From positions 62,001-126,000 of the forward strand of contig NZ_BMMT01000009.1 in assembly GCF_014646075.1 (NCBI RefSeq): a stretch of 64,000 bases of DNA, read 5' to 3'. The translations under genes were made by a program, and so were the position numbers. The stretch's first letter is position 1, and each line of letters opens with the position of its first letter. Under the pieces are notes generated by a model, which was given only the letters and a program-made list of their open reading frames with translations, was not told the DNA's origin and did no database searches. This document shows, one piece after another, positions 2,369 to 33,084 of this stretch. The stretch comes from Saccharopolyspora thermophila. GTDB taxonomy: Bacteria > Actinomycetota > Actinomycetes > Mycobacteriales > Pseudonocardiaceae.

Positions 2369-3787
2369 TCAGCCCGGCAGGCCGGGGCCCCGGCAGTCCA
2401 CGTCGCCGGCGGGAACGGTGCCGTCCACGAGGTAGGCGGCCACGGTGGTGTCGACGCAGGCGTTGCGCTGGCTGGCGAAGACGCCGTGCGAGTAGCTGTC
2501 GTGCAGCAGCACCATGCGGGAACCGGGCAGGTGCTGCTGCATCCGCCGAGCTCCCGGCAGCGGCGTGGTGGGATCGTGTTCGGCCTGCACCAGCAGGACC
2601 GGCGGCATCGCCGGGTGGCCGAGGCGCGCGGTCTCGCGGGGCCGCGGCCAGTAGCGGCAGGCCGCGGATTCCAGTCCGGTGAGGACCGGTTGCGGATCGG
2701 CGGCGCGCAGCGACCGCAGCGCGCCCAGCACCTCGGCGGTGCTCGGCCGCGGGCTGTCGGCGCATTTCACGATCCGCAGCGCGGCCTCGTAGTTGCGCGA
2801 TCCGACGTCGGTGCCGGGCAGTTCCGGGGTGAGCCCGGTGGTGTCGCCGGCGTGCAGGTACGCGCCGACGGCCCGCGCGAACGGCTCCCACCGCTCGGTG
2901 CGCGAGAGGGTCCGGTAGACGAGGTGGTCGAACTCGGCGGGGCCGAAGGTGCCACGTGCCGGGTGTTCGGCCAGTGCGGAGCGGGCCCGCAGGTAGTGCG
3001 CGCGCACGTCCTCGACCGTCGGACCGAGGCCGAACTCGGGGTGCGCGGCGATCCAGCGGAACAGCACCTCGCGCTGCGCCAGCATGGCGAAGCCCTGCCG
3101 TACGTCGAAGTCGTGCCAGTCGCCGGGGCTGACGACGCTGTCGAGAACCATCCGGCCCACCCGGTGCGGGAACTCGGCCGCGTAGGCGGCACCGAGGTAG
3201 CTGCCGTAGGAGACGCCGAGGAAGTTCAGCCGCGGTTGGCCGAGCGCCTGGCGGATGCGCTCGACGTCGCGCGCGGTGTTGACGGTGTTGATGTGGGTCA
3301 GCACCGCGCCGCTGCGCTGCCGGCAGTCGTCGGCGACGGCGCGCAGCCGGTCCAGGTGGGTGCGGTCGTCGGGCGGGACCGGGTCCGCGCCCGGGTGGTC
3401 GAACAGGCCGCCGAGCGGGCCGCAGTCGACCGGGGCGCTGCGGCCCACGCCGCGCGGGTCGAACCCGATGACGTCATAGGCGCGCTGCACCGGCTCGGGC
3501 AGCTTGGCGCGCTTGGCCACGGCGTAGTCGAAGCCGGACCCGCCAGGGCCACCGGGGTTCACCAGCAGCGCACCCCGGTACTCCGATGGCGTGCCGCTGG
3601 CCCGGATCCGCTTGACGGCCAGGGAGATCTGCCGTCCGCGCGGTTCGGAGTAGTCCAGCGGCACGGTGATCTCGGCGCAGTCCGCGGCGGGATCACCGGC
3701 GCACGGCACGAACAGCGGGGCGTGGACGGCGTTGATCAGCGGGGCGATGAGGAGGGCGGTCAGCCCGAGGCGGGCGGTTCTGATCAC
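2369..3787 (-). CDS. Secreted alpha/beta hydrolase, tripeptidyl aminopeptidase (SlpD/SlpE) family
   Basis: A 472-residue protein with an N-terminal hydrophobic export signal (about residues 1-25), then the mature region containing VNPGGPGGSG and the nucleophile elbow GVSYGS. A C-terminal TAP-like domain carries the acid and His of the triad (EHDPTTP and SYSHGVF). This is the Streptomyces SlpD/SlpE-type layout: extracellular exo-peptidases removing N-terminal tripeptides. The start is a GTG at 3787 with a weak GGAAG upstream. The gene is divergent from the metal-regulated operon beginning at 3888, and the Zur-like box at 3833-3855 lies in the shared promoter region, so zinc control of this gene is possible but unproven. 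Confidence 0.87.
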   Translation of the reverse strand: MIRTARLGLTALLIAPLINAVHAPLFVPCAGDPAADCAEITVPLDYSEPRGRQISLAVKRIRASGTPSEYRGALLVNPGGPGGSGFDYAVAKRAKLPEPVQRAYDVIGFDPRGVGRSAPVDCGPLGGLFDHPGADPVPPDDRTHLDRLRAVADDCRQRSGAVLTHINTVNTARDVERIRQALGQPRLNFLGVSYGSYLGAAYAAEFPHRVGRMVLDSVVSPGDWHDFDVRQGFAMLAQREVLFRWIAAHPEFGLGPTVEDVRAHYLRARSALAEHPARGTFGPAEFDHLVYRTLSRTERWEPFARAVGAYLHAGDTTGLTPELPGTDVGSRNYEAALRIVKCADSPRPSTAEVLGALRSLRAADPQPVLTGLESAACRYWPRPRETARLGHPAMPPVLLVQAEHDPTTPLPGARRMQQHLPGSRMVLLHDSYSHGVFASQRNACVDTTVAAYLVDGTVPAGDVDCRGPGLPG

Positions 3788-3832: not shown

Positions 3833-3855
3833 TTGAAAACGATTATCATCGCCAA
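3833..3855 (+). promoter_or_regulatory. Zur-like operator 1
   Basis: An A/T-rich imperfect palindrome in otherwise very GC-rich DNA. The core TGAAAACGATTATCA (3834-3848) is a dyad whose flanks read TGA...TCA, resembling actinobacterial Zur boxes (TGAAAA-type half sites). It lies about 33 bp upstream of the GTG start at 3888. The 13-base segment GAAAACGATTATC at 3835-3847 recurs exactly, on the opposite strand, at 19211-19223 upstream of a zinc metallochaperone gene. A near copy is at 10082-10104. Confidence 0.7.
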
Positions 3856-3887
3856 CTGTTGCGCACAACCGCCTGGAAGGAGTCCGC

Positions 3888-5156
3888 GTGGGCCACCTGC
3901 TGTTGGTGGAGAGCTGGGTCGGATCGATGAGCGCGCTGCTGCCCCGGGGGATCAGGGAGAGCGGCCACCGGTTCAGCTTCCTCACCCGCGATCTGCAGCA
4001 CTACTTGCGGTCGAAGCCGACGGCCGGGACGCACCCGTTGCTGGGCGCGGACAACCTGCTCACCTTCGAGACCAACGATGTGCCGGAGCTGCTGGACCAC
4101 CTGTCGGCGTTGCAGCCGGTGCTCGGCTTCGACGGCGTGCTGTCCTCCTGCGACTACTACCTCGCGACCGCTGCCCGCGCCGCCCAGCGCCTCGGGCTGC
4201 CGGGCGCGCCGCCCGAGGCGGTGGAGCGGGCATGCGCCAAGGACCGCACCCGCCTCGCGCTGCGCGAGGCGGGCGTGCCCGGCCCGGCCTTCGCCCTCGC
4301 CGAAACCGCGTCGGGGCTGGAGGAAGCCGCCGAGGCGCTGGGCTACCCGCTCGTGGTCAAGCCCGTCGATCTGTGCGCGGGCATGTTCGTGCGCGAAGTG
4401 GACGGTCCGGCCGCACTGCGCGAAGCCTACGCCGCGCTGCGGGACTTCCCGGTCAATGCGCGCGGCCAGCAGCGCAGTCCCGTGGTGCTGCTGGAAGAAC
4501 TGCTGACCGGACCGGAGGTGAGCGTGGAGACCGTGACGGCGGGCGGCCGCACCACGGTCGTCGGCGTCACCGACAAGAGCATCGCCGGCGCACCGTGGTT
4601 CGTCGAAACCGGGCACATGTTCCCGGCCGCGCTGGACCCCGGCACCGAGGCCGAGGTGACGCGCACCGCGGTCGCCGCGATCGAGGCACTGGGCCTGGAC
4701 CACGTCGTGGGCCACACCGAGATCAAGATCACCCCGGCCGGGCCACGGGTGGTCGAGGTCAACCCGCGACCGGCGGGCAACCAGATCACCGAACTGATCC
4801 GGCGGGTCACCGGCATCGACCTTGCGGCCGTCCACGCACAGCTCGCCCTGGGCGAGGAATTCGACCTGCAGCGGGTCAACACCGGCGCCGCCAGCGCGGC
4901 CATCGCCTTCCTGCTGCCACCCCGCGAGGGCGTGCTCGCCGAGGTGCGCGGCACCGAGCGGCTGCGCAGCGATCCGGCGGTGGTCGACTGGTCGGTCAAA
5001 CCCGCCGGGCACCGCACCGGCCCGGCCACCAGCAACAACAACTACCTCGGCCACGTCATGGTGACCAGCGACCGGCCCGGGGCGGCGCGTGCCCGCGCCG
5101 AGTCGATGATCGCCGGACTCGACGTGCGCTACGCCACCGCGGAGGCCGCCGCGTGA
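3888..5156 (+). CDS. ATP-grasp amino acid/peptide ligase, first gene of putative zincophore operon
   Basis: A 422-residue ATP-grasp enzyme. An N-terminal pre-grasp Rossmann-like domain is followed by the ATP-grasp core with a KPVD lysine strand and the metal-binding segment EVNPRPAGNQ near residues 287-296. Proteins of this layout join a carboxylate, usually of an amino acid, to an amine through an acyl-phosphate. The GTG at 3888 is preceded by GGAAGGA at 3875-3881. The stop overlaps the next start (GTGA), indicating translational coupling. With a cysteine-synthase-like enzyme and a dipeptide epimerase in the same operon, the likely job is ligation of a small peptide or pseudo-peptide chelator. 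A Zur-like box lies just upstream. Confidence 0.82.
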   Translation: MGHLLLVESWVGSMSALLPRGIRESGHRFSFLTRDLQHYLRSKPTAGTHPLLGADNLLTFETNDVPELLDHLSALQPVLGFDGVLSSCDYYLATAARAAQRLGLPGAPPEAVERACAKDRTRLALREAGVPGPAFALAETASGLEEAAEALGYPLVVKPVDLCAGMFVREVDGPAALREAYAALRDFPVNARGQQRSPVVLLEELLTGPEVSVETVTAGGRTTVVGVTDKSIAGAPWFVETGHMFPAALDPGTEAEVTRTAVAAIEALGLDHVVGHTEIKITPAGPRVVEVNPRPAGNQITELIRRVTGIDLAAVHAQLALGEEFDLQRVNTGAASAAIAFLLPPREGVLAEVRGTERLRSDPAVVDWSVKPAGHRTGPATSNNNYLGHVMVTSDRPGAARARAESMIAGLDVRYATAEAAA

Positions 5157-5959
5157 CCCCGCGGTCGGTCGAGGAGCTCACCCATCAGGTCCTCAGTGGA
5201 CAGCACGGGCAGGTGCGGGACGCCACGGTCAGCGTCGGTTTCCTCACCCAGCAGGGAGCCCGGCACGCCGACCGGCAGCGCGAGTACCGCAACCACGTGC
5301 TCAGCCTGCGGGTCGAGGACGAGGTGGGCTCGTGCGCGGTGGAACCCGGTGAGGTGACCGAGGACGTCGTCCTCGACTGCGTCGGCGCGCCCGTCGCGGA
5401 CCTGCTGCGCAGCCCGCTGCGGCCGGTCCGCGTCGCCGCGCTGGACGCGTACCTGCAGTGGCGGCGACCGCACCGCGACCACGCCGAGGCGGTGGTCGTC
5501 GGGCGCGGCAGCTCGCTGCAGAAGTCGTTGCACCGCGCCCGATGCGTGGTCGACCTGCTGCCCGTCGGGCCAGGCCGGCGGGTGCTGGTGGTGGGTGTGG
5601 TGAACTCCCTGCTGCACCAGCTGCGCGAACGCGGCAACCCCTACGTGGCCTGCGACTACAAGGGCGGCCGCACCGAGTGGGGCGAGCCGGTGGTCACCGA
5701 CGCGCTGGCGGCGCTCGACGACTGCGAGGCGGTCCTCGCCTCCGGGATGGTCGTCGGCAACGGCACCTTCCAGCCGCTGCTGGACCACTCCCGGGCGACC
5801 GGAACCCCGCTGGTGATGTTCGCCCAGACGGCCAGCGGAGTACTGCCGCACTTCCTCGGCAGCGGCGTCACCGCCGTCTCCGCCGAGCCCTACCCGTTCT
5901 TCTGGCTCGACGGCGGCCCCACCACGCTCTACCGCTACGCGCCGGGAGGGTGCCGCTGA
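5153..5959 (+). CDS. DUF4213/DUF364 family protein (putative heavy-metal chelation domain)
   Basis: A 268-residue protein whose N-terminal half looks like DUF4213 (enolase N-terminal-like) and whose C-terminal half looks like the Rossmann-like DUF364 domain, recognisable by RRVLVVGVV near residue 143 and [12 protein letters not shown] near residue 200. DUF364 is annotated in family databases as a putative heavy-metal chelation domain, but no catalytic function is established that I know of. The GTG start at 5153 overlaps the previous stop, and its own TGA overlaps the next ATG (TGATG at 5957). Position inside a Zur-box operon is consistent with handling of a metal or of the metal-chelator complex. 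I infer the domains by recognition, not by a search. Confidence 0.72.
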
Positions 5960-7014
5960 TGCCGGGAAACCGCGATCTGCTGGGGCTGGTGTGCGAAACC
6001 CCGCTAACCCGGATCAGCGCGCCGCTGCCGCAACCGCACCCGGGTTTCTGGGCGAAGCTGGAATGCCTCAGCGCGGGCGGGATGAAGGCCCGCGCGGCAG
6101 TGTCGATGCTCACCGGCGCCCGCCGCCGGGGCGAGCTGCGCCCGGGCGCGGCGGTGGTGGAGTCGACCAGCGGCACGCTCGGCATCGGGCTGGCCTTCGC
6201 CGGTCAGGCGCTGGGGCACCCGGTGGTGCTGGTGGTGGACAGCGAACTCGAACCCGCCATGCGGGCCCTGCTGCGGGCGCACGGCGCGCGCCTCGAGGTC
6301 GTCGACGAACCGCACCCGGTCGGCGGCTGGCAGCAGGCGCGGCTGGACCGGGTGCGGCAGCTGTGCCGCGAACTGCCGGACGCGTTCTGGCCCGACCAGT
6401 ACAACAACCCGGACAACCCGGCCGGCTACGAGTCGATGGGCGACGAGATCGCCCGGCAGATCGACCGGGTCGACGTGCTGGTGTGCAGCGTGGGGTCCGG
6501 CGGGCACAGTGCAGGCACCGCCCGCGCGATCCGCCGCCGCTGGCCGCAGGCCCGCCTGATCGGCGTGGACACCATCGGCTCGACCATCTTCGGCCAGCCC
6601 GCCCGGCCGCGGCTGATGCGCGGGCTGGGCAGCAGCATCCATCCCCGCAACGTCGCTTATGGACAGTTCGACGAGGTGCACTGGGTGGGGCCGGTGGAGG
6701 CGGTGCAGGCGTGCCGCACCCTGGCGCGCCGGGCGTTCGTCACCGGGGGCTGGAGCACCGGGGCGGTGGCGCTGGTGGCCGCCTGGGCGGCGCGCGTCGA
6801 TCCCGGCGCGCGGGTGGTGACGGTGTTCCCCGACGGCCCGCACCGCTACCTCGGCACGATCTTCGACGACGACTACTGCCGGGCGCGGGGGCTGCTGGAC
6901 CGGCCGATCGCGACCCGCCCCGTGGAGATCGCCGACCCGCGGGTGGCGGTGGACGGGTGGACGCGCTGCCAGGTCGTGGCGGACCCGCTGCTGGCGATGG
7001 AGGTTCCGGCGTGA
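5959..7014 (+). CDS. PLP-dependent cysteine-synthase-like beta-substituting enzyme
   Basis: A 351-residue fold-type II PLP enzyme related to CysK and SbnA. The Schiff-base lysine is K43 in the segment [10 protein letters not shown], the phosphate loop is GSGGHSAG near residue 180, and the GGWSTGA motif lies near residue 260. The substrate loop that reads TSGN(T/L)G in cysteine synthases reads TSGTLG here (residues 70-75), so the conserved Asn is replaced. The likely chemistry is beta-replacement on O-acetyl- or O-phospho-serine with an amine or amino acid, yielding a diaminopropionate-type building block, but the nucleophile is unknown. It overlaps both neighbours (ATGA/GTGA) in the putative zincophore operon. 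A separate SbnA-like paralogue is at 31053. Confidence 0.82.
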
Positions 7015-8024
7015 AGCTGGGGTGGACGGTGCAGCGGCTCACGCTCCGCGAACCGTTGCGGATCTCCCGTTCGGTCATGGCCGAACGGGACGCGGTGACG
7101 GTGGAGCTGGTGCACGACGGCGTGGTGGGCCGCGGCGAAGTGGTGACCAGCACCTACTACGGGTTGACGCGGGAGCGGATCGAGGCGGAGCTGTTGGCGG
7201 CGCGCGAGGTCGTCGAGGCGACGGCTGATCCGGGCGATCTGCGCCTGACCAGCGATGTTCCCGGGGTCACGGCAGCGCTCGACGCGGCCTGGCACGACCT
7301 CGTCGCCGCGTTGCGGGGGGTGCCGGTGTTCGAGCTGCTCGGCGCGGCCAGCTGGCAGCCGACACCGACGGCGTACACGATCGGCATCATGCCGGTCGAC
7401 TGCGCGGTGCGGGCCGCCCGGGACCTGATCGCCCGCGGGTTCAGCGTGCTCAAGGTGAAGCTCGGCGCGCACGACGACGAGATCGACCGGCTGCGGGCGA
7501 TCCGCGGTGCCGCCCCGCACGCCCGCCTGCTGCTGGATCCCAACGGGGCGTGGGAACCCGAGCAGGCGGAACGGATGCTCGTCGCCGCGGCCGAACTGGA
7601 CGTCGACGCCGTGGAACAACCCATCCGGCCCGGCACGCCCGCCGTGCTCGCCGAGGTGGCCGCCCGCTCCCCGGTGCCGGTCATCGCCGACGAGGACGCG
7701 GCCACAGTGGACGACGTACGCGCCCTGGGCCCGCGGGTGCACGGGGTGAACGTGAAACTGGCCAAGTGCGGCGGGATCCGGGCGGCGCGCGAGATCATCG
7801 CCGCCGCCCGGGCGAACGGGGTCGACGTGATGCTCGGCTGCCTGGTGGCCAGTTCGCTCGGCATCGCCCCGGCCGTGCACCTGACCCACGCGGCGCGCTG
7901 GGTCGACCTCGACGGGCACCTGCTGCTGGCGCGGGACCCGTGGACCGGCATCGGCGGCGCCGACGGCGTGCTGCGCCTCGAAGGGGACCGCGGTCTCGGC
8001 GTGCGTCCGGCGGTGCCGACATGA
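7011..8024 (+). CDS. Enolase-superfamily dipeptide epimerase
   Basis: A 337-residue muconate-lactonizing/mandelate-racemase subgroup enzyme. Residues visible: K148-V-K150 (KxK acid/base), metal ligands D176 (LDPNGAW), E202 (EQP) and D227 (ADED), and K249 on the opposite face. A C-terminal D299-L-D301 motif (WVDLDGH) is the DxD signature that holds the alpha-amino group of the substrate in L-Ala-D/L-Glu-type dipeptide epimerases. It should therefore invert a stereocentre in a dipeptide or dipeptide-like product. The GTG start overlaps the upstream TGA at 7012. Coming after the ATP-grasp and PLP genes, it probably sets the stereochemistry of the chelator, though murein peptide recycling is an alternative role for the family. 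Confidence 0.85.
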
Positions 8025-9304
8025 GGACCTGGCGGCTGATCCGCAGCTTCCCGCCGGCCCTGCAGCTGCTGCTGGTCAACCAGTTCGGCGTGAACACCGG
8101 TTTCTACCTGCTGGTGCCGTACCTGGCCGGGTACCTCGGCCACGCGCTGGGCGCCTCGGCGGCGGTGGTCGGACTGGTTCTCGGCGTGCGCACGCTGAGC
8201 CAGCAGGGGCTGTTCCTGCTCGGCGGCTCGGCCGCGGACCGGTGGGGCGCGCGGGGCGTCATCGTCGCCGGATGCGCGCTGCGCGCGGTGGGATTCGCGC
8301 TGTTCGCCTTCGGCACCTCGCTGCCGGTGCTACTGCTGGCGTCGGCGCTGAGCGGACTGGCCGGGGCGCTGTTCAACCCAGCGGTGCGCACCTACCTGGC
8401 GCAGGAGGCGGGGGATCGCCGAGCCGAGGCGTTCTCGCTGTTCAACGTCTTCGCCAACACCGGTGCCCTGCTCGGTCCGCTGCTGGGCAGCGCGCTGATC
8501 GCGGTGGGCTTCCAGATTTCCGCCCTGGTGGCCGCGGTGATCTTCGCGGTGCTGACCATCGCGCAGGTCGCGGTGCTGCCGGTGCGGCGCGTGCCGCGCC
8601 CGGCGAACTCGGTGTTCACCGACTGGCGTGTGGTGCTGGCCGACCGCCGGTTCCTGGCCTTCACCGCTGCGCTGACCGGGCTGTTCGCCCTGCACAACCA
8701 GCTGTACCTGGTGCTGCCGATGCAGGCCGAGCGGTTCACCGGCTCGCCCGGTGCGGTGGCGGCGGTGTTCGTGGTGGCCACGGTCGCGACCCTGGTGCTG
8801 CAGGTCCGCGTCACCGATGCGGTCAAGGACCGCTGGCGCCGCGGCCGGTCGATCGCCGTCGGACTGGCGGTGATGGGCGCCGGATTCGCGGCCACCGCCG
8901 CGGCCGCCGCGGTGGTCCCGGCCGCGCCCGCGGCGGACCCTCGGGACGCGGCGGTGCGGCTGCTGCCGGTGCTTCTCACGGCGTTCCTGCTGGCGCTGGG
9001 GGTGATGGTGGCGCAGCCGTTCGTCTACGAGCTGATCCCGTCGTTCGGCCGGGCGGAGCTGGCGGGCACCTACTTCGGCGTGTTCTACGTCGTCTCCGGG
9101 ATCACCGCGGCGGCGGGCAACGCGCTCATTGGCTGGCTGACCGACCTGGCGGGCCGGGAGTGGTCGTGGCTGCCCGCGACGCTGTGCGTGCTCATCGGCC
9201 TGTCCTCGGCGGCCGCCGTGCTGGTGCTGGACCGGCGCGGCGGCATCGTTTCCGGAACTGGAGGATTTCGGTGCGCCCCACCATCGTCAGCGCGAACTTC
9301 CTGA
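8021..9304 (+). CDS. MFS transporter, putative metallophore exporter
   Basis: A 427-residue major facilitator with about 12 hydrophobic segments and the loop 2-3 motif region reading GGSAADRWGARG (residues about 68-79). Such MFS pumps are usual exporters in metallophore clusters. The ATG at 8021 overlaps the preceding TGA, and the gene's last 34 bases overlap the methyltransferase start at 9271. The C-terminal tail after the last membrane segment is short and polar. The substrate is inferred only from operon context; a general drug pump cannot be excluded from sequence. Confidence 0.83.
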   Translation: MRTWRLIRSFPPALQLLLVNQFGVNTGFYLLVPYLAGYLGHALGASAAVVGLVLGVRTLSQQGLFLLGGSAADRWGARGVIVAGCALRAVGFALFAFGTSLPVLLLASALSGLAGALFNPAVRTYLAQEAGDRRAEAFSLFNVFANTGALLGPLLGSALIAVGFQISALVAAVIFAVLTIAQVAVLPVRRVPRPANSVFTDWRVVLADRRFLAFTAALTGLFALHNQLYLVLPMQAERFTGSPGAVAAVFVVATVATLVLQVRVTDAVKDRWRRGRSIAVGLAVMGAGFAATAAAAAVVPAAPAADPRDAAVRLLPVLLTAFLLALGVMVAQPFVYELIPSFGRAELAGTYFGVFYVVSGITAAAGNALIGWLTDLAGREWSWLPATLCVLIGLSSAAAVLVLDRRGGIVSGTGGFRCAPPSSARTS

Positions 9305-10065
9305 CCGACAACCCGGCCCTCTACGAGCAGCGGTTCCCGGACCCCGAGCACCTCGCGGCGCGCTTCGTCGACGACCTCGTGCGCCGCTTCGGCGGTGGCC
9401 GCGACCTGCTCGACGTGGGCTGCGGAACCGGGCGGGACGCGCGCCACTGGACCACGCGCGGCTACCGCGTCACCGGGCTGGACATCTCGCCGCAGATGGT
9501 CGAGCACGCCCACAAGCACTGCCCGGCGGGCAGGTTCGCGGTCGCCGACATGCGCACGTTCCGCCTGCCGCGGGAGTTCGACGTGATCACCTGCCTGGAC
9601 AGCGCCCTGCTGTACTGCCACACCAACCCGGAGCTGGACGCGTTCCTGCAGCGCTGCCACCGCCACCTGCGGCCGGGCGGCCTGCTGGTCGCCGAGATGC
9701 GCAACGGCGCGTTCTTCCTGGGCAACACCGAGCTGCTCGACGAGGTCCGCGAGCAGGAGGTGGTCTGGGACGGCGTGACGTACCGGTCCCGGACGCGGCT
9801 GTGGATCGACCACGCCAACCAGCTGCTGCGGCGGGAGCGCAGCTGGGACTGGCCCGGGCGGGACGAGCCGCTGGTGCAGCGCTCGGCGTGGCGGCTGCTG
9901 TTCCCGCAGGAGCTGCGCTGTTTCGCCGCCCGGCACGGCTTCGAGGTGCTGGCGATGTTCGACGAACCGGGGCCGCGGGCGCGGACGCCGTGGCACCCGG
10001 ACGCGGAGCTGTCCACCCGGCTCAGCGGCGACCGGCTGCACCTGGTGTTGCGGCGACCGGGCTGA
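9271..10065 (+). CDS. Class I SAM-dependent methyltransferase
   Basis: A 264-residue Rossmann methyltransferase with motif I LDVGCGTGRD near residues 47-56, an acidic loop GLDISPQM and the later LRPGGLLVAEMRNG segment. The GTG at 9271 is chosen because TGGAGG sits 6 nt upstream; this puts the start inside the MFS gene by 34 bp. It is the last gene of the first Zur-box operon. A role in N-, O- or C-methylation of the metallophore or its precursor is inferred from context; the acceptor cannot be predicted. The Zur-like box 2 follows 17 bp after its stop codon. Confidence 0.82.
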   Translation: MRPTIVSANFLTDNPALYEQRFPDPEHLAARFVDDLVRRFGGGRDLLDVGCGTGRDARHWTTRGYRVTGLDISPQMVEHAHKHCPAGRFAVADMRTFRLPREFDVITCLDSALLYCHTNPELDAFLQRCHRHLRPGGLLVAEMRNGAFFLGNTELLDEVREQEVVWDGVTYRSRTRLWIDHANQLLRRERSWDWPGRDEPLVQRSAWRLLFPQELRCFAARHGFEVLAMFDEPGPRARTPWHPDAELSTRLSGDRLHLVLRRPG

Positions 10066-10081
10066 CCCCTTGGCCGTCTTG

Positions 10082-10104
10082 TTGAAAACCAATATCATTA
10101 TCAA
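10082..10104 (+). promoter_or_regulatory. Zur-like operator 2
   Basis: An A/T-rich segment containing TGAAAACCAATATCA (10083-10097) and a following TTATCAA, 31 bp upstream of the ATG of the ABC substrate-binding protein. It matches operator 1 at 12 of the 15 core positions. This indicates that uptake genes and biosynthesis genes are separate transcription units under the same regulator. Confidence 0.68.
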
Positions 10105-10134
10105 CAAAGCTCGAAGGAACGGAGAAACCTCGGC

Positions 10135-11706
10135 ATGCCCCAGGACAACCGCCGCCACCCGCCCGCCCGCGCCGTGGACCGGCGTGGGTTCCTCGGCCTG
10201 ACCGCCGCGGCCGGAGCGGCCGCCGTGCTGTCCGGCTGCACCGGTGGTTCGGCGGGCGACGCCGCCGGGCGGCCCCGCACGGGCGGGCGGTTGCGCGCGG
10301 CCTTCTCCGGCGGGGGAGCGGCCGAGGTGCTCGACCCGCACGAGACCGACCTCTACGCCGAGATCGCCCGCGCCAAGGCGGTGTTCGACAAGCTCGCCGA
10401 CTACGGCTCGGACATGTCCCCGCAACCGCGGCTCGCCGAGCGCTGGGAGGCCGCCCCGGACCTGCGGACCTGGCGGATCACGCTGCGGCAGGCCGCCTTC
10501 CACGACGGCAGACCGGTGCGGGCCCGGGACGTGCTGTACAGCTACGCGCGCATCACGGCCCCGCGGAGCACCTTCCGCGCCAAGGCCAGCCTGTCGGTGA
10601 TCGACCTGCCGGCCAGCCGCGAGGTCGACGACCGCACCGTCGAGTTCCGGCTCACGCGGCCCTACGCGGAGTTCCCCAACGCCCTGGCCACGCTGGGCGC
10701 CTACATCGTCCCGGAGGGCACCACCACCTTCGACCGGCCGGTGGGATCGGGACCGTTCCGGTTCGTCTCCTTCACCCCGGGCCGCACCTTCCTGGCGGCC
10801 CGCAACCCCGACTACTGGGACGGCGCGCCGTACCTGGACGAGCTGGAGATCGTCGTCACCAACGACGAGGCGGCCCGGGTCAACGCACTGCTGGGCGGGC
10901 AGGTCGAGTACGCCCACGACCTCACCCCCACCAGCGCGCGCACCCACGAGCGCACCGGCCGGATACGGGTGCACCGGCTGCCGCTGAGCAACTTCCACGG
11001 CCTGGCGATGAAGACCGACCGGCCGCCGTTCGACCGGCCCGAGCTGCGCCAGGCGCTGTTCCACCTGGTCGACCGCGAGGAACTGGTCCGCTCGGTGCTG
11101 CAGGGCTCCGGCCAGGTCTGCAACGACCTCTACGGCAAAGGCTACCGCTACTACGCCGACGCGCTGCCGCAGCGCTCCCAGGACCTGGACCGGGCGCGGG
11201 CGCTGATCCGGCAGGCCGGGGCCGAGGGCATGACCATCGACCTGGACACCTCCGACGCCTCGACCGGGCTCGAGGAGGCCGCGCTGACCATCAGCGACCA
11301 GGCCCGGCAGGCGGGGCTGAAGCTGACCGTGCGGCTGGGCAACAAGGACACCTACTGGTCCGACATCAGCAGGAACGGCGTGCTCGCCGGGTACCGTTCC
11401 GGCGCGATGCCGTTGGAGTCGCACATCGCGCAGCGCCTGCTGTCCACCTCGACGACCAACAACACCAGGTGGCAGCGCCCGGAGTTCGACGCGCTGTACC
11501 ACGAGGCGCAGTCCACATCGGACGAAGCGCGCCGCGCGGAGCTGTACTTCCGGATGCAGGAGCAGCTGTACCGCGAGGGCGGCTTCCTGTGGTGGGGCGT
11601 GTCGGACTGGATCGTGGCCTCGGCGCCGACCGTGGGCGGCATCGACGACCGCGCCCCGGCCAACACCCTGGACTGGGCCCGTTTCGACAGGGTGTGGCTC
11701 GCGTGA
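10135..11706 (+). CDS. ABC transporter substrate-binding lipoprotein (SBP family 5, Nik/Opp/Dpp type)
   Basis: A 523-residue extracytoplasmic solute-binding protein of the family that includes NikA, OppA, DppA and CntA. The N-terminus has a twin-arginine-like DRRGFLG followed by a hydrophobic stretch and the lipobox VLSGC with the modified Cys at residue 35, so it is predicted to be Tat-exported and lipid-anchored. The family fold is supported by segments such as RAFPEE-like AERWEAAPD and GSGPFRFV. In Staphylococcus the related CntA binds a metal-staphylopine complex. With a Zur-like box in its promoter, I infer that it binds a zinc-loaded chelator. Its TGA overlaps the next GTG. Confidence 0.85.
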   Translation: MPQDNRRHPPARAVDRRGFLGLTAAAGAAAVLSGCTGGSAGDAAGRPRTGGRLRAAFSGGGAAEVLDPHETDLYAEIARAKAVFDKLADYGSDMSPQPRLAERWEAAPDLRTWRITLRQAAFHDGRPVRARDVLYSYARITAPRSTFRAKASLSVIDLPASREVDDRTVEFRLTRPYAEFPNALATLGAYIVPEGTTTFDRPVGSGPFRFVSFTPGRTFLAARNPDYWDGAPYLDELEIVVTNDEAARVNALLGGQVEYAHDLTPTSARTHERTGRIRVHRLPLSNFHGLAMKTDRPPFDRPELRQALFHLVDREELVRSVLQGSGQVCNDLYGKGYRYYADALPQRSQDLDRARALIRQAGAEGMTIDLDTSDASTGLEEAALTISDQARQAGLKLTVRLGNKDTYWSDISRNGVLAGYRSGAMPLESHIAQRLLSTSTTNNTRWQRPEFDALYHEAQSTSDEARRAELYFRMQEQLYREGGFLWWGVSDWIVASAPTVGGIDDRAPANTLDWARFDRVWLA

Positions 11707-12644
11707 TCCGCTACGCCACCCGTCGGGTACTGCTCGGCGTCGTGCAGGTCGGGTTGGTGATCGCGCTGGTGTTCGTCCTGACCGAGGCGCTGCCCGGTGA
11801 CGCGGCCGTGACGATCGCCGGGGACAACCCGGACCCGGCGGTCATCGCCCTGCTGCGCGCGCAGCTCGGCCTCGACCAACCGGCCTGGGTGCGGCTGGGC
11901 GAGTGGTTTTTCGGCGTGCTGCACGGTGACTTCGGCCGGTCGCTGGTGGGGTCGCGCCCGGTCGCGGAGATCATCGCCGCGGCGGCCGGCCCGACCCTGC
12001 TGCTGACCGCGCTCACCCTGGCCCTGCTGGTGCCGCTGTCGGTGCTGCTGGGCATGCTCGCCGCGCACCGCGAGGGAGGGTGCCTGGACCGCGTCATCAC
12101 CAGCAGCACGCTGGGCCTCTACTCGGCGCCGGAGTTCGCGATGGCCATCCTGGTGGTGACCGTGTTCGCCGTGCAGCTGGGGTGGTTCCCGCCCACCGCC
12201 GTCGGCAGCTCGTCCCTGCTGGCGCAGCCCGCCGTGCTGGTCCTGCCGGTGCTCGTGCTGCTGCTCCGGCCGATCTGCTCGCTGAGCAGGCTGGTGCGGG
12301 CCGGCGTGCTCGACGCCCAGCGCGCCGAGTACGTCCGGCACGTGCGCCGCCTCGGGCTCTCGCCCACCCGGGTCCGCTTCGCCCACGTGCTGCCCAACGC
12401 GGTCGCCCCGGCGGTCCAGCAGCTGGCGCGCACCTCGGACTGGCTGATCGGCGGGGTGATCGTGGTCGAGGCGATCTTCGCGATCCCCGGCATGGGCACC
12501 ACGCTCGTGGACGCCGTCGCGGCCCGCGACCTGCCGGTGATCCAGGGTCTGGCGGTGGTCTTCGCGACCACCACCGTGCTGGTCAACCTCGCCGCCGACA
12601 TCGCGGCCCGGGTGCTGGCCCCGGCCTCGGAGGTGGGCCGGTGA
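11703..12644 (+). CDS. ABC transporter permease (DppB/NikB type)
   Basis: A 313-residue inner-membrane permease with six predicted transmembrane helices. It has the long periplasmic loop after helix 1 and the EYVRHVRRLGLS coupling-helix (EAA) region near residue 205. The GTG start overlaps the substrate-binding protein's stop codon, and the stop overlaps the next permease start. It forms the translocation pore with the product of 12641-13435, for the ligand delivered by the upstream lipoprotein. Confidence 0.88.
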   Translation: MIRYATRRVLLGVVQVGLVIALVFVLTEALPGDAAVTIAGDNPDPAVIALLRAQLGLDQPAWVRLGEWFFGVLHGDFGRSLVGSRPVAEIIAAAAGPTLLLTALTLALLVPLSVLLGMLAAHREGGCLDRVITSSTLGLYSAPEFAMAILVVTVFAVQLGWFPPTAVGSSSLLAQPAVLVLPVLVLLLRPICSLSRLVRAGVLDAQRAEYVRHVRRLGLSPTRVRFAHVLPNAVAPAVQQLARTSDWLIGGVIVVEAIFAIPGMGTTLVDAVAARDLPVIQGLAVVFATTTVLVNLAADIAARVLAPASEVGR

Positions 12645-13435
12645 GCAGGTACGCCGTCCCCGCGGCGCTGGTGGCGGTTCCGCTGCTGCTGGCGCTGTTC
12701 GGGCCGCTGTTCGCCGCCGCCGACCCGGCCAGGGACGTGGCGTTCCAGCTCGGCGGCGGGCACTGGTTCGGCACCGATTTCGTCGGCCGGGACGTGTGGA
12801 ACGAGGTGCTGCTCGGCGGGCGGTCCCTCGTCGTGGCCGCCGCGACGGCCACGGCGTGCACCTACGTGCTGGCCGTTCCGCTCGGGCTGGTGGCCGGCAT
12901 GACCCGCAACCGGTTCCTCGACGAGGTGCTGATGCGACCGCTGGACCTGCTGCTGGCGATCCCGTCGATGCTGGTGCTGTTGCTGCTGGCGCCGATCGCG
13001 CCGGACTCCACCGGGGTGCTGGTCGCGATCGTGACGCTGATCAACGTGCCCGACGTGGTGCGCATCAGCCGGGCGTCCGCGCTGTCGCTGGGCAGCCGCC
13101 CGGCCGTGGAGGCGATGCGGTTGCAGGGCGAGTCGCGACTGCGCATCGGCGTGGGCTACGTGGCGCGGGCGATGCGCCGCACCCTGGCCGCCGACCTGGG
13201 TATCCGGTTCACCGGCGCGATCTACCTGGTCGCCTCGGCGAGCTTCCTGGGCGTCGGGATCTCCCCGCAGGCCAGCGACTGGGCGGCCATGGTCGACCGC
13301 AACCGCGCGGGCCTGTTCATCCAGCCGTGGGCGGTGGTGCTGCCCGCGGTCCTGATCGTGCTGCTGTCGGTCGGCGTGAACCTCGCGTTCGACCGCTGGT
13401 TGCGCGACCGATCCACCCTGGAGGCCCTCCGGTGA
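12641..13435 (+). CDS. ABC transporter permease (DppC/NikC type)
   Basis: A 264-residue second permease of the importer. The segment WFGTDFVGRDVWNEVLLGG is the characteristic start of DppC/NikC proteins, followed by five to six membrane segments and a coupling region VEAMRLQGESRLRIG near residue 150. It is slightly shorter than usual for the family because the cytoplasmic N-terminus is reduced. GTG start overlapping the upstream TGA; its TGA overlaps the ATPase start. It completes the membrane pore of the putative zincophore importer. Confidence 0.87.
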   Translation: MSRYAVPAALVAVPLLLALFGPLFAAADPARDVAFQLGGGHWFGTDFVGRDVWNEVLLGGRSLVVAAATATACTYVLAVPLGLVAGMTRNRFLDEVLMRPLDLLLAIPSMLVLLLLAPIAPDSTGVLVAIVTLINVPDVVRISRASALSLGSRPAVEAMRLQGESRLRIGVGYVARAMRRTLAADLGIRFTGAIYLVASASFLGVGISPQASDWAAMVDRNRAGLFIQPWAVVLPAVLIVLLSVGVNLAFDRWLRDRSTLEALR

Positions 13436-14982
13436 CCGTCGTCGACGTCCGCGACCTCAGCATCGCGGTGGGCGAGCGCGACATCGTGCGCTCGGTGTCG
13501 TTCACCCTGGCGGCCGGAGAGGTGACCGCGCTGGTCGGGGAGTCCGGCAGCGGCAAGACCACGACCGCCCTGGCCCTGCTCGGCGAACATCCCGCCGGGG
13601 CCCGCGTCAGCGGCCGGGTCGAGGTCGCCGGTGCTCCGGTGCCGCCCGCACCGGGCACCGTCGGCTACCTCCCGCAACACCCCTCCGCGGCCCTCAACCC
13701 GGTCCGCCGGATAGGCCCGGTGCTACACGAGATCGCCCACGCGCACGTCCGCGCGACGACGCGGCGGGAACGCCGGGAACGGACGCGGGCGCGGGTCCGG
13801 GAAGCGATGCGGCAGGCGCGACTGCCCGACGCCGAACGGCTGCTGCGCCGTTACCCGCACCAGCTCTCCGGTGGCCAGCAGCAGCGCATGGTGCTGGCGC
13901 ACGAACTGGCGGGCCGCCCGCGGGTGCTGATCGCCGACGAACCGACCACCGGCCAGGACGGGGTGACCCGCGGGCAGCTGGTCGCCGAACTGCGGGCGGT
14001 GGCGCAACGGGGTGTCGCGGTCCTGCTGCTCACCCACGACCTCGACCTGGTGCGGGCGCTGGCGAACCAGGTGCTGGTGATGCACAGCGGAGAGGTGCTG
14101 GAGTCCGGGACGTGCTCGGAGGTCCTGGGCGCACCGCGGCACTCCTACACCCGGCGCCTGGTCGAAGCCCAACCCGATCTCGTCGTGGCCGACCGCGCCG
14201 CCGACTCCCCGGGACGGCCGCTGATGTCGGTGCGCGGGCTCACCGCTCGTCACGGGCGGACGACGACGCTGCACGACATCAGCCTGGACATCCACCCCGG
14301 GGACCGCCTGGCGGTGCTCGGCCGGTCCGGCAGCGGCAAGACGACCCTGGCCCGCTGCCTCGCCGGGCTGCATCCGCACGGCGGGGAGATCCGGCTTGGT
14401 GACCAGGCCCTGGCACCCGGGCTGCGCCGCCGCTCCCGCGACCAGCTCGCGCGGGTGCAGTACGTGTTCCAGGACGCCAGGGCGTCGTTCAACGAGTTCG
14501 CACCGGTGCTCGACCAGGTCGCCCGCACCGCCGAAAGGCTCCGCGGCGCAAGCGCTTCCGAGGCGCGCGTCCGTGCCGCTGACGCGCTCGCCCGCCTCGG
14601 CGTCGCCGAGTCCAGCGCGGCCCGGCGGCCCCGCTCGCTGTCCGGTGGCGAACTGCAGCGGGCGGCCCTGGTGCGCGCGGTGCTGGCCGAACCGGACGTG
14701 CTGATCTGTGACGAGATCACCTCGGGGCTGGACGCGGTGACCCAGGCGGAGCTGCTGGACGTGCTGGCGAAGGTCCAGCAGGACACCGGCTGCGCCCTGG
14801 TGGTGATCACCCACGACCTCGGCGTGGTGGCCGAACTGGCCGACCGGGTGCTGGTACTGCACGCGGGCCGGGCCGTGGAGCAGGGGCCGACGGCCCGGCT
14901 GCTGGCCGACCCGCAACATGCGGTGACCGCGCAGCTCGTGGCGGCGGCGAAGGACCCCGCCGCGGCACGAACAGACCCGTGA
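13432..14982 (+). CDS. ABC transporter ATPase with two fused nucleotide-binding domains (Dpp/Nik D+F type)
   Basis: A 516-residue protein with two complete ABC ATPase domains in tandem. The first has Walker A GESGSGKTT (about 36-44), signature LSGGQQQR and Walker B VLIADEPTT. The second, from about residue 262, has Walker A GRSGSGKTT, signature LSGGELQR and VLICDEITSGLD. In most Opp/Nik systems these are two genes; the fusion supplies both motors of one importer. It is the final gene of the uptake operon and starts by GTGA overlap. Immediately downstream is a gap of about 110 bp before the convergent regulator gene. Confidence 0.88.
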   Translation: MTVVDVRDLSIAVGERDIVRSVSFTLAAGEVTALVGESGSGKTTTALALLGEHPAGARVSGRVEVAGAPVPPAPGTVGYLPQHPSAALNPVRRIGPVLHEIAHAHVRATTRRERRERTRARVREAMRQARLPDAERLLRRYPHQLSGGQQQRMVLAHELAGRPRVLIADEPTTGQDGVTRGQLVAELRAVAQRGVAVLLLTHDLDLVRALANQVLVMHSGEVLESGTCSEVLGAPRHSYTRRLVEAQPDLVVADRAADSPGRPLMSVRGLTARHGRTTTLHDISLDIHPGDRLAVLGRSGSGKTTLARCLAGLHPHGGEIRLGDQALAPGLRRRSRDQLARVQYVFQDARASFNEFAPVLDQVARTAERLRGASASEARVRAADALARLGVAESSAARRPRSLSGGELQRAALVRAVLAEPDVLICDEITSGLDAVTQAELLDVLAKVQQDTGCALVVITHDLGVVAELADRVLVLHAGRAVEQGPTARLLADPQHAVTAQLVAAAKDPAAARTDP

Positions 14983-18070: not shown

Positions 18071-19087
18071 TCAGCCGCGGGTGTACTTCACCACGTCGAG
18101 CATGCAGTGCTCGTCGTCCGGATCGGGCTCGCCGAGGCAGTCCGCCAGGCGCGCGCGCACCCCGTCAGCGTCCAGGCCGGAGCCGATGACCACCAGCTGG
18201 GTCCGCCGCGGCTCGTCGCGCGCCCACCGCGAGCGGTGGAACCGCAGGAAGTCACCGACGGTGTGCAGGGCGAACTTGTGGCCGTGCCCGGGTGCGGCGA
18301 AGTGCACCTGGCCCTTCATCCGGTAGATCCCGGCCGGGCGGTCGTCGAGGAACCGCATCAGCGCCCGCGGGTTCACCGGCTGCTCGGCGCTGAACGACAC
18401 GCTCTGGTACGCCGCGTGCAGGTGGTCGCCGCAGTCGTCGTCGGCCAGCAGGTCGTCGAAGGACAGCTGGCCCGCGGTGTCCCGCCGGCGGCGCAGCGAC
18501 TCCCGGTCGAACAGCAGCGCCGGGTCCACCCGGCCGTGCGTGGTGGGCAGCACCGGGGTGCCGCCGCTGATGCCGCGCACCAGCTCCAGCATCCGGTCGG
18601 GGTCGGCCGCGCGGTCGATCTTGTTCAGCAGCACCAGGTCGGCGAACCGCAGGTGCTGGTCGATCTCCGGGTGGCGGTGCCGGGTGCGCTCGAACTCCGC
18701 GGCGTCGACCACCTCGACCAGCCCGCCGTAGCTGATCCGCCGGTTGGTGCTGTTGAGCAGCAACCGGACCATGCCGCGCGGGTCGGCCAGCCCGCTGGAC
18801 TCGATGACGATCACGTCGATCCGGCTGCTGGGGCGGGTCAGCCGGGCCAGCAGGTTGTCCAGGCCGCGGGCGTCGACCGCGCAGCACAGGCACCCGTTGC
18901 CCAGCGACACCGAGGCGTCGACCTGGCCGGCCACACTGAGCGCGTCGATGTTGATCTGGCCGAAGTCGTTGACCACCACGCCGATGCGCGCGCCCTGCGG
19001 GTTGCGCAGCAGGTGGTTGAGCAGGCTGGTCTTGCCGGCGCCGAGGAACCCCGCGAGGACGATCACGGGAATCGGCGGCTGCGCCAC
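18071..19087 (-). CDS. CobW/ZNG1-type GTP-dependent zinc metallochaperone (COG0523)
   Basis: A 338-residue G3E-family GTPase. It has Walker A GFLGAGKT (residues 13-20), the metal-binding GCLCC motif (65-69) and the NKID guanine-specificity motif near residue 157, plus a C-terminal CobW domain with histidine-containing loops (APGHGHKF). Family members induced by zinc starvation deliver zinc to client enzymes. GTG at 19087 is preferred over ATG at 19126 because AAAGGCAG lies upstream of it. A Zur-like box sits 124 bp upstream, inside the end of the ribonuclease Z gene, which supports a zinc rather than cobalamin role. Confidence 0.87.
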   Translation of the reverse strand: MAQPPIPVIVLAGFLGAGKTSLLNHLLRNPQGARIGVVVNDFGQINIDALSVAGQVDASVSLGNGCLCCAVDARGLDNLLARLTRPSSRIDVIVIESSGLADPRGMVRLLLNSTNRRISYGGLVEVVDAAEFERTRHRHPEIDQHLRFADLVLLNKIDRAADPDRMLELVRGISGGTPVLPTTHGRVDPALLFDRESLRRRRDTAGQLSFDDLLADDDCGDHLHAAYQSVSFSAEQPVNPRALMRFLDDRPAGIYRMKGQVHFAAPGHGHKFALHTVGDFLRFHRSRWARDEPRRTQLVVIGSGLDADGVRARLADCLGEPDPDDEHCMLDVVKYTRG

Positions 19088-19199
19088 GGGAACTGCCTTT
19101 CGGTCTCGGGGAACGCTCGGGAGCATAGCGAGCCGCTCGGGGGCGGTGGCCGCCCCGAGCCCGCCCGCTCAGCCCGTCGCGCCCGGTGATCGCGGACCA

Positions 19200-29265: not shown

Positions 29266-29622
29266 GCGTGACTTTGGCCTCTGGGCGATCACCGCAGGTG
29301 GCGGCACGATGACCTGCGCATACGGCGCATACGGTGAGGCGCTGCTGTTCGATGAGGTTGTGGTGCCGGTGTTCGCTTCAGCTCGGGAGAGGCGCCGTCG
29401 GGGCTCACGGCGTTGGCTTGACGGTGGGTGGCTGCCGCGCCTGCCGCGTCGCGTCCGCCGCCTGCTGGCTCTCGGCTGACCCCGCCGACGACGCCGTCGT
29501 ACGGCACCGCGTGCTCGGCGTTGTGCGTGGCCTGCTGGGCGCCGTCGGTGCACAACCACCAGCCGTGGCGCGGGACGGGCGTTTGAGTGGTGGCTGGCGC
29601 GGGCCGCTGCGAGGCTGGGCGC
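29266..29622. other. 357-bp intergenic region
   Basis: Contains a short direct repeat GCATACGGC/GCATACGG near 29317. No gene, RNA or terminator can be supported; open frames on both strands lack ribosome sites and family resemblance. Confidence 0.4.
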
Positions 29623-30708: not shown

Positions 30709-30978
30709 CCGAACCGCGGGTAACGCCGCATGCGCACCGCGTCGTCAACCGCGCCGTACCCGCAGCCGCATCGCGCCGGAGTGCGCGGAATTCGCGCCGG
30801 AGCGGTTCGGCTGTGCACTGTGGACAGTAGGGCGATCGGCCCAGCGGGGTTGCTCCGTGCTCCCTGTCGGCTGCCGACATGGGGACGGTCGTCCTGGCCC
30901 GTGCCCACCAGGCGCCGCTGCACTGTTCGGGGCAACTTCGCCACGAGGGTGTGATCGTCCTCTCCTCGATCTCTTCTA

Positions 30979-30997
30979 TTAAGTTAGCCTTACCTTT
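30979..30997 (+). promoter_or_regulatory. IdeR/DmdR1-type iron box
   Basis: TTAAGTTAGCCTTACCTTT matches the DtxR/IdeR consensus TTAGGTTAGSCTAACCTAA at 15 of 19 positions. It lies 55 bp upstream of the GTG of the sbnA-like gene and is the most A/T-rich spot in the 30709-31052 gap, which otherwise contains no supported gene. It predicts repression of the siderophore operon by ferrous-iron-loaded IdeR/DmdR1. Confidence 0.82.
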
Positions 30998-31052
30998 GCT
31001 AGCGTTCCGTGCCGTTGCCCCGCCCGTTCCGGTCGCCGAGCTGAGGAGAAAC

Positions 31053-32042: not shown

Positions 32043-32054
32043 CAAGGAGATCTG

Positions 32055-33074: not shown

Positions 33075-33084
33075 GCGGGTGACG

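What the first reader, a model, noticed from the sequence alone, without database searches (positions are those of the whole stretch)
3833..14982. Zur-box locus that looks like a new zinc metallophore biosynthesis and uptake system
Two consecutive operons have similar A/T-rich Zur-like boxes (3833-3855, 10082-10104). The first encodes an ATP-grasp ligase, DUF4213/DUF364 protein, cysteine-synthase-like PLP enzyme, dipeptide epimerase, MFS pump and methyltransferase, all start/stop coupled. The second encodes a Nik/Opp-type ABC importer, the transporter class of the staphylopine importer Cnt. Seen: gene content and boxes. Known: DUF364 is annotated as putative heavy-metal chelation; DxD enolases epimerise dipeptides. 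Inferred: a diaminopropionate-type amino acid is ligated, epimerised and methylated to a small chelator that is secreted and reimported with Zn. No NRPS or NIS enzyme is present, so this would be a different route. Zur-controlled [S,S]-EDDS in Amycolatopsis japonica is a precedent for actinomycete zincophores; I cannot recall its gene content well enough to exclude a relationship.
Basis: partly seen in the sequence, partly recalled or inferred. Interest (0 to 1): 0.9.

Follow-up and report, generated by a model that had tools for sequence, protein, structure and literature searches.

The report
Zinc-switched metallophore genes of actinomycetes
A conserved set of ten or eleven genes, seen in dozens of actinomycetes and apparently switched on by zinc shortage, looks set to build, export and re-import a small zinc-catching molecule with enzymes unlike those of the usual metal-scavenger pathways.

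Summary
Ten coupled genes (3888-14982) lie behind two Zur-like boxes. Related but weaker sites (9-10 of 14) precede a znuA gene, a COG0523 GTPase in this window, and the ArsP/TIGR03943 pair beside a Fur-family gene in the same genome. All ten genes are present and collinear in 70 of 80 related loci; the box is conserved in 67 of 77 readable upstream regions (background 80 of 20,000). An eleventh gene, a GNAT acetyltransferase, lies at the cluster in 52 of 80 loci. Here it has moved to another contig but keeps a 13/14 box, as do unlinked copies in four related genomes. Best explanation: a Zur-repressed zincophore pathway. An SbnA-like PLP enzyme and DUF364 form the core; an L-amino-acid ligase, dipeptide epimerase, methyltransferase and GNAT tailor the product; an MFS pump exports it; an Opp/Nik-type ABC system re-imports it. 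None of the ten proteins has opine-dehydrogenase, NRPS or NIS domains, nor the decarboxylase or lyase that EDDS/EDHA should need. Minimal relatives keep DUF364, PLP and pump, most with the importer, suggesting a two-enzyme core, but they lack the box. Product, metal and reactions are untested. Verdict: new variant of a known kind.

The parts
3834..3855 (+). Zur-like box 1 (TGAAAACGATTATCATCGCCAA), ending 32 bp before the ATP-grasp start
   Evidence: conserved in 67 of 77 related upstream regions
3888..5156 (+). ATP-grasp L-amino-acid ligase (ATP-grasp_4 + LAL_C2)
   Evidence: nearest solved structures are L-amino-acid ligases BL00235 (3vot) and BacD
5153..5959 (+). DUF364 protein, predicted fold as in 3l5o (enolase-N-like plus Rossmann-like domains)
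5959..7014 (+). SbnA-like PLP enzyme (beta-replacement family)
   Evidence: PALP; TIGR03945 264 bits, under its 350 cut-off; best PDB SbnA 5d84-87
7011..8024 (+). Enolase-superfamily enzyme, probably a dipeptide epimerase
   Evidence: MR_MLE_N/C; nearest solved 4gfi and 3iji (muconate-cycloisomerase-type names), then epimerases 3rit and 1jpd; catalytic motifs invariant in 77 of 77
8021..9304 (+). MFS transporter, presumed exporter
   Evidence: MFS_1; MdtH model 152 bits, under cut-off 469
9271..10065 (+). SAM methyltransferase, possibly an N-methyltransferase
   Evidence: Methyltransf_25; nearest solved are N,N-dimethyltransferase 3bxo and CalS10 6uk5
10083..10104 (+). Zur-like box 2 (TGAAAACCAATATCATTATCAA) before the importer operon
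   Evidence: a site of 11 or more here also in 3 of 74 relatives (L004, L005, L009)
10135..11706 (+). Family-5 solute-binding lipoprotein of the importer
   Evidence: SBP_bac_5; nearest solved AgaA 6hlx
11703..12644 (+). Opp/Nik-type permease 1
   Evidence: Opp2B 220 bits, under cut-off 350
12641..13435 (+). Opp/Nik-type permease 2
   Evidence: Opp2C 125 bits, under cut-off 300
13432..14982 (+). Double ATPase of the importer
   Evidence: two ABC_tran stretches; best NCBIfam model NikD 326.9 vs 318.7 bits, but that sum counts two stretches of a fused protein
2369..3787 (-). Probable additional member: TAP-like alpha/beta hydrolase, divergent from the operon across box 1
   Evidence: PF00561/PF08386; homologue in 22 of 80 loci, in 21 of these 22 divergent and within 600 bp of the ligase
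18071..19126 (-). Probable fellow member of the Zur regulon: COG0523/CobW GTPase
   Evidence: PF02492/PF07683; ZigA model 123 bits, under cut-off 600
19210..19224 (-). Zur-like box (CGAAAACGATTATCG, 10 of 14) before the COG0523 gene

Best explanation
The locus is a Zur-repressed system that makes, exports and re-imports a small peptide or aminocarboxylate zinc metallophore. Under zinc starvation Zur leaves the boxes. The SbnA-like PLP enzyme adds an amino compound to the aminoacrylate from an activated serine (probably O-phosphoserine), giving a 2,3-diaminopropionate-type chelating unit. DUF364 performs the second core step, in its pocket between two domains. The ATP-grasp ligase couples this unit to a further amino acid, the enolase-superfamily enzyme inverts a centre of the resulting dipeptide, and the methyltransferase and the GNAT (encoded elsewhere here) cap amines. 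The MFS pump secretes the product, and the Opp/Nik-type ABC importer recovers the zinc complex. Shown computationally: gene content, linkage, box conservation, and the box retained by the displaced GNAT. Inferred: every reaction, the metal and the product.
For: Boxes are specific and related sites lie at zinc genes of the same genome: with up to 2 mismatches the motif hits 10 distinct places, reversed control 0; among them window boxes 1 and 2, the GNAT gene, the ArsP_1/TIGR03943 pair and the COG0523 gene. A weaker site precedes one of two znuA genes. TIGR03943 (over cut-off) lies between ArsP_1 and a Fur-family gene, with uppS on the other side. Box conserved in 67 of 77 upstream regions. Ten genes collinear in 70 of 80 loci. 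GNAT at the cluster in 52 of 80 loci: 39 directly after the ATPase gene, 12 on the opposite strand upstream of the ligase, 1 in a broken cluster; displaced here but with a 13/14 box. Prediction test: 28 loci showed no GNAT; 11 of the 28 genomes have one elsewhere, and the best copy in 8 of those 11 has a site scoring 10 or more (13, 13, 13, 13, 12, 11, 11, 10) against 36 of 2,000 background windows. PLP is SbnA-like; the equivalents of SbnA R132 and Y152 (R128, Y148) are invariant in 80 of 80. Ligase, epimerase and methyltransferase kinship. Exporter plus Opp/Nik importer in one unit.
Against: No expression, Zur-binding or metabolite data. By my 14-point score the sites at the zinc genes are weaker than box 1 (12): znuA 9, ArsP 10, COG0523 10; the other znuA-family gene 6 and the one L28 gene 8, i.e. 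no site. Which of the four Fur-family genes is Zur is not settled: the one beside TIGR03943 scores best with Fur/PerR models (77 bits) and 36 bits with the enterobacterial Zur model, all below cut-offs. Type-B relatives have no site within 260 bp upstream of DUF364 in 6 of 6 loci examined. The second box is rare: 3 of 74 relatives plus the window. In 17 of 28 genomes no GNAT was found anywhere, and 3 of the 11 best displaced copies score under 10 (one with only 70 bp to read). The PLP enzyme is below the SbnA equivalog cut-off, and SbnA's Ser185 is Gly in 80 of 80 (also in 8 of 8 usable SbnB-linked relatives). 10 of 77 upstream regions score under 10.
Confidence: 0.72

Rival explanations
1. 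It is an aminopolycarboxylate metallophore pathway of the EDDS/EDHA type under another gene arrangement, so the product is EDDS-like and the kind is already known.
For: EDDS is Zur-controlled, made without NRPS or NIS in an actinomycete (passages of PMC6103462, PMC9252823, PMC4993170) and has aspartate as a precursor. EDHA comes from an 11-kb cluster in Streptomyces (passage of PMC8914351). An SbnA-like enzyme would fit a first step shared with them (inference).
Against: EDDS and EDHA carry an ethylenediamine bridge, so a decarboxylation should be needed; none of the ten proteins hits a decarboxylase or an argininosuccinate-lyase family in Pfam. An aminopolycarboxylate cluster in Nocardia was reported with an iron (DmdR1) site and a MATE exporter (passage of PMC10920908), unlike this one. 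The aes and EDHA gene lists were not seen.
Confidence: 0.12
2. A Zur-controlled metallophore whose main cargo is another metal (Ni, Co, Cu) or several metals, as staphylopine has.
For: The importer belongs to the Nik/Opp class (the NikD score over cut-off counts two stretches of a fused protein); family-5 binding proteins such as NikA take metal-chelator complexes (recalled).
Against: Related sites lie at zinc genes of the same genome, and the iron-type site lies instead before the NIS cluster.
Confidence: 0.16
3. A small secreted dipeptide antimetabolite (bacilysin-like) or protease inhibitor, made when zinc is short; the importer takes up peptides as nutrients.
For: The ligase is closest to BL00235 and BacD, the alanine-anticapsin ligase; an MFS transporter and a probable dipeptide epimerase are present.
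Against: The importer belongs to the same conserved set (70 of 80 loci); the box looks zinc-type. A divergent, TAP-like hydrolase in 21 of 80 loci fits either reading.
Confidence: 0.08
4. Cell-wall peptide recycling (L-Ala-D/L-Glu epimerase plus peptide importer) that happens to be zinc-regulated.
For: The epimerase resembles L-Ala-D/L-Glu epimerases such as 1jpd.
Against: It is below the equivalog cut-offs for L-Ala-D/L-Glu epimerase (148 vs 343 bits); PLP enzyme, DUF364, GNAT and an exporter have no evident place in murein recycling; minimal relatives lack the epimerase but keep PLP, DUF364 and pump.
Confidence: 0.03

Closest known systems
Staphylopine/pseudopaline (opine-like zincophores, Cnt)
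   Same: Small non-NRPS, non-NIS chelator logic; export and import in one locus; Opp/Nik-class ABC import (CntD and CntF models 313 bits each for the fused ATPase, under cut-offs of 380 and 385); zinc regulation.
   Different: No staphylopine dehydrogenase or nicotianamine-synthase family among the ten proteins; has ATP-grasp ligase, probable dipeptide epimerase, PLP enzyme and DUF364 instead.
[S,S]-EDDS (aes, Amycolatopsis japonica) and EDHA aminopolycarboxylate metallophores
   Same: Actinomycete, Zur-controlled (EDDS), neither NRPS nor NIS.
   Different: No decarboxylase or lyase here for an ethylenediamine bridge; peptide ligase, epimerase, methyltransferase and GNAT present; aes sequences not compared.
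Staphyloferrin B (SbnA/SbnB, NIS)
   Same: The PLP enzyme is nearest to SbnA among solved proteins and 39% identical to the SbnA of the NIS cluster in the same window.
   Different: No SbnB or IucA/IucC in the cluster; PLP under the SbnA cut-off (264 vs 350 bits) while the window's other SbnA scores 417; the NIS cluster has an iron-type site.
Coelibactin (NRPS zincophore of Streptomyces)
   Same: Zur-controlled actinomycete metallophore (PMC6103462 passage).
   Different: No NRPS domain here.
L-amino-acid ligases BL00235/BacD
   Same: ATP-grasp plus LAL_C2 domain composition of the window protein; sequence kinship.
   Different: Sits in a zinc-boxed transport cluster; BacD equivalog model far below cut-off (61 vs 850 bits).

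Membership tests
Zur regulon | Zur-type operator upstream, related to sites at zinc genes of the same genome | tested here: met
   the zinc-gene sites score only 9-10 of 14, and naming the motif Zur's also rests on a recalled actinomycete consensus
Zur regulon | A Zur protein identified in the genome | tested here: inconclusive
   four Fur-family genes; the one beside TIGR03943 is below all NCBIfam cut-offs, best with Fur/PerR models; its place near uppS resembles mycobacterial furB (recalled)
Zur regulon | Zinc-dependent Zur binding and derepression | not testable with these tools
   needs EMSA and expression data
Opine-like zincophores | Opine dehydrogenase (PF10100) and nicotianamine-synthase-like enzyme | tested here: not met
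   neither among the ten proteins; genome-wide search for PF10100 found none, but its control rang nowhere, so that part is inconclusive
Opine-like zincophores | Opp/Nik-class ABC importer and an exporter in the cluster | tested here: met
   direction of the MFS transporter is presumed
NRPS metallophores | NRPS adenylation/condensation domains | tested here: not met
NIS siderophores | IucA/IucC synthetase in the cluster | tested here: not met
   the window's own IucA/IucC proteins lie in a separate cluster
EDDS/EDHA aminopolycarboxylates | Enzymes for the ethylenediamine bridge (a decarboxylase; a lyase or equivalent) | tested here: not met
   the requirement is inferred from the product structure, not from a gene list
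EDDS/EDHA aminopolycarboxylates | Orthology to the aes or EDHA genes | not testable with these tools
   gene sequences not obtained; the EDHA paper is not held and the passages read gave no gene list
SbnA (TIGR03945) diaminopropionate synthase | Score over the equivalog cut-off | tested here: not met
   264.4 vs 349.95 bits
SbnA (TIGR03945) diaminopropionate synthase | SbnB partner in the cluster | tested here: not met
   none among ten; SbnB-family genes over cut-off lie elsewhere in the genome, contig C6 and window 32055-33074
L-amino-acid ligase | ATP-grasp plus LAL_C2 over gathering scores | tested here: met
Dipeptide epimerase (enolase superfamily) | KxK and second Lys, D/E/D metal ligands, C-terminal DxD (roles recalled) | tested here: met
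   K148, K150, K249, D176, E202, D227, D299 and D301 invariant in 77 of 77; equivalog models below cut-off, so the substrate is open
DUF364 (PF04016) | Over gathering; two-domain fold of 3l5o | tested here: met

The most novel reading that the evidence does not exclude
DUF364 and an SbnA-like PLP enzyme form a previously unrecognised two-enzyme core for non-NRPS, non-NIS, non-opine metal chelators, with DUF364 in the place that SbnB, nicotianamine synthase or opine dehydrogenase fill elsewhere. Evolution has built on this core several systems, many zinc-boxed, that differ in importer and tailoring. The window's version is the most elaborate seen here: it makes an epimerised, N-modified dipeptide-like zincophore, and its GNAT gene, and perhaps a divergent secreted hydrolase, join the pathway through the same operator even when the GNAT sits elsewhere in the genome.
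Probability: 0.5. Interest if true: 0.88.

Novelty: new variant of a known kind. Interest (0 to 1): 0.75.

Why it matters
If true, it adds a biosynthetic route to the short list of bacterial zincophores, gives the orphan DUF364 family its first defined pathway, and supplies a genome-mining handle: DUF364 beside an SbnA-like enzyme, pump and importer, or a lone GNAT under a Zur-like box. The scan found 301 places encoding a relative of the DUF364 protein in a collection of 84,980 species genomes (it uses exact peptide patterns, so more may exist; only the best 80 were examined here). The passages I saw in 11 opened papers do not describe it. A chelator of this class could also be useful as a metallo-enzyme inhibitor or biodegradable complexing agent (inference).

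Tried and rejected
Considered and rejected. (1) Iron control: the best iron-type site in the window (TTAAGTTAGCCTTACCTTT, 30979-30997, 15 of 19 against a recalled consensus) is before the NIS cluster. (2) Opine-like, NRPS, NIS: no such domains among the ten proteins. (3) SbnB acting in the cluster: none there; two SbnB-family genes over cut-off lie elsewhere in the genome, so action in trans is not excluded. (4) Using Ser185 of SbnA as a discriminator: 8 of 8 usable SbnB-linked relatives have Gly too, while the window's own SbnA has Ser. (5) Zur-like boxes at SbnA/SbnB loci of the family as a sign of an aes-like cluster: the best score in the 12 loci held, each about 4 kb, was 8 to 10, none convincing. 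(6) Palindrome pattern GANANNGNNNNCNNTNTC: 0 hits in the window.

Led nowhere. No solved homologue of the GNAT. Paper searches: zincophore with ATP-grasp, Zur and gene cluster (0 papers); SbnA with Zur, zinc and ethylenediamine (1, unrelated by its listing); Zur regulon with ATP-grasp, cysteine synthase, MFS (2, unrelated by their listing); aspergillomarasmine (1 listed, not opened); dipeptide epimerase, ATP-grasp, metallophore (4 listed, not opened); DUF364 and its names (7 listed, 1 opened). Long lists were seen only in part: 20 of 101, 40 of 171, 10 of 3,554, 15 of 47.

Full report
What is there. Window 3888-14982 encodes ten genes on the plus strand in two coupled blocks: ATP-grasp ligase, DUF364, PLP enzyme, enolase-superfamily epimerase, MFS transporter, methyltransferase; then solute-binding lipoprotein, two permeases and one protein with two ATPase domains. 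Each block is preceded by an A/T-rich box in otherwise G+C-rich DNA (3834-3855, 10083-10104). Pfam assigns every protein. The host is very probably a Saccharopolyspora or close relative: the best named homologues of DUF364 and PLP are Saccharopolyspora proteins at about 79-87% identity.

Are the boxes zinc boxes? In the own genome a looser motif with up to two mismatches hits 10 distinct places, reversed control 0. Besides the two window boxes these include a GNAT gene (see below); the promoter of an ArsP_1 permease followed by a TIGR03943 subunit (over cut-off), a pair I recall as zinc-linked (B. subtilis YcgR/YcgQ), with a Fur-family gene next to it and uppS on the other side (the furB-uppS neighbourhood of mycobacterial zur is recalled); and window 19210 in front of a COG0523 GTPase. 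One of two znuA-family genes has TTGACAACGGTTTCCGTTACCATT upstream, resembling box variants of Lentzea and Saccharothrix relatives by eye. On my 14-point score these zinc-gene sites reach only 10 (ArsP), 10 (COG0523) and 9 (znuA), against 12 for box 1 and 11 for box 2; the other znuA-family gene (6) and the one L28 gene found (8) have none. The Fur-family neighbour is not clearly Zur by family models. The window also supplies a contrast: its staphyloferrin-B-like NIS cluster (SbnA 417 bits and SbnB 385 bits, both over cut-off; three IucA/IucC proteins) has the window's best iron-type site and no Zur-like box at its start.

Conservation. A scan of 84,980 species genomes with the DUF364 profile confirmed 301 relatives; the best 80 became loci. 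All ten genes are present, collinear and co-oriented in 70 of 80; 3 more lack only the methyltransferase, and the other 7 are broken or cut. Of 77 loci with readable upstream sequence, 67 have a site scoring 10 or more of 14, against 80 of 20,000 windows elsewhere in the same loci and 13 of 3,850 shuffled upstream sequences; of the ten lower-scoring ones, nine have their best site at the usual place, -52 to -65. The second box, before the importer, appears in only 3 of 74 relatives. The system is patchy: 6 of 396 genomes drawn from the phylum (the own one included) and 132 of 297 genomes of the family (23 of 46 genera) have a DUF364 relative at E<=1e-30, the latter mixing several architectures.

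An eleventh gene, perhaps a twelfth. The GNAT gene behind the box on contig 23 has homologues in 52 of 80 loci: 39 directly after the ATPase gene (38 on the same strand), 12 on the opposite strand upstream of the ligase, 1 inside a broken cluster. In the window's genome it is unlinked but keeps a 13/14 box at -106. I tested the implied prediction. Of the 28 genomes whose locus showed no GNAT (some loci are cut by contig ends), 11 have one elsewhere (14 copies). The best copy per genome has box scores 13, 13, 13, 13, 12, 11, 11, 10, 9, 6 and 6 (one of the 6s had only 70 bp of upstream sequence); the three second copies have 6-7; background at 10 or more is 36 of 2,000. In 17 of 28 no GNAT was found. 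A gene that leaves the cluster yet keeps the same operator is strong evidence of a shared pathway. A TAP-like hydrolase upstream (2369-3787) recurs in 22 of 80 loci, in 21 of them divergent and within 600 bp of the ligase; in five Streptomyces-type loci (L046, L051, L068, L069, L082) the GNAT follows it in the same divergent direction. It may act on the secreted product.

Relatives that point to the core. Fourteen loci picked from the more distant DUF364 matches were read, 2 from the phylum search and 12 from the family search. Type B (L131, L132, L138, L140; L129 and L130 without a neighbouring importer) has DUF364, PLP and MFS, in 4 of 6 with the Opp importer, and no match to the ligase, epimerase or methyltransferase (other added genes were not searched for in full). 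Type C (L099, L100, L134, L135, L137, L139) has DUF364, a more distant PLP enzyme and FecBCD-type importers, in 5 of 6 with a GHMP kinase (confirmed by Pfam in L099); 5 of 6 have a site scoring 11-13. L136 mixes a C-type pair with the Opp importer and has a 12/14 site before the SBP gene. L133 is a full type A with a 10/14 site. The part common to all is DUF364 plus PLP, hence the proposal of a two-enzyme core; a GHMP kinase beside it would fit phosphorylation of the amino-acid substrate (inference). Against a uniform zinc story, type B shows no site within 260 bp upstream of DUF364 (6 of 6).

Known or new. Zincophores as such are known. This cluster is not opine-like, NRPS or NIS by domain content. 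The nearest precedent in regulation and host is EDDS, described as Zur-controlled and outside NRPS and NIS (passages of PMC6103462 and PMC4993170), and antiSMASH 7 has a rule for aminopolycarboxylic acid metallophores (passage of PMC10320115). EDDS and EDHA should need a decarboxylase, absent from the ten; but the aes and EDHA gene lists were not available, so a partial relation stays open. Ten literature searches in the held open-access library listed no paper that I recognised as describing this cluster; four of the lists were seen only in part and subscription papers are largely not held. I therefore file it as a new variant of a known kind, with the bolder two-enzyme reading given as the novel case.

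Noticed in passing
window 30879-41427: Staphyloferrin-B-like NIS siderophore cluster: SbnA, SbnB, three IucA/IucC synthetases and an Orn/DAP-type decarboxylase, with an iron-type site at 30979-30997.
   Followed up: partly
window 18071-19224: COG0523/CobW GTPase behind a Zur-like site, next to a gene I read as ribonuclease Z-like (by eye, not scanned); probably another zinc-starvation gene.
   Followed up: partly
window 2369-3787: TAP-like alpha/beta hydrolase divergent from the operon across box 1, with homologues in 22 of 80 related loci, 21 of them in the same divergent place; could act on the metallophore.
   Followed up: partly
L099, L100, L134, L135, L137, L139: Cousin clusters of DUF364, PLP enzyme and usually a GHMP kinase with FecBCD-type importers, most with a Zur-like site; possibly another metallophore family.
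   Followed up: partly
L131, L132, L138, L140: Minimal DUF364-PLP-MFS-Opp importer operons without a Zur-like site nearby; what controls them is unknown.
   Followed up: partly
window 29587-30708: VIT1-family membrane protein just before the NIS cluster.
   Followed up: no
G000 contig C6:63687-64667: A second SbnB-family gene over cut-off (431 bits) with an SbnA-like match nearby (L108), so the genome seems to have more than one diaminopropionate unit.
   Followed up: no
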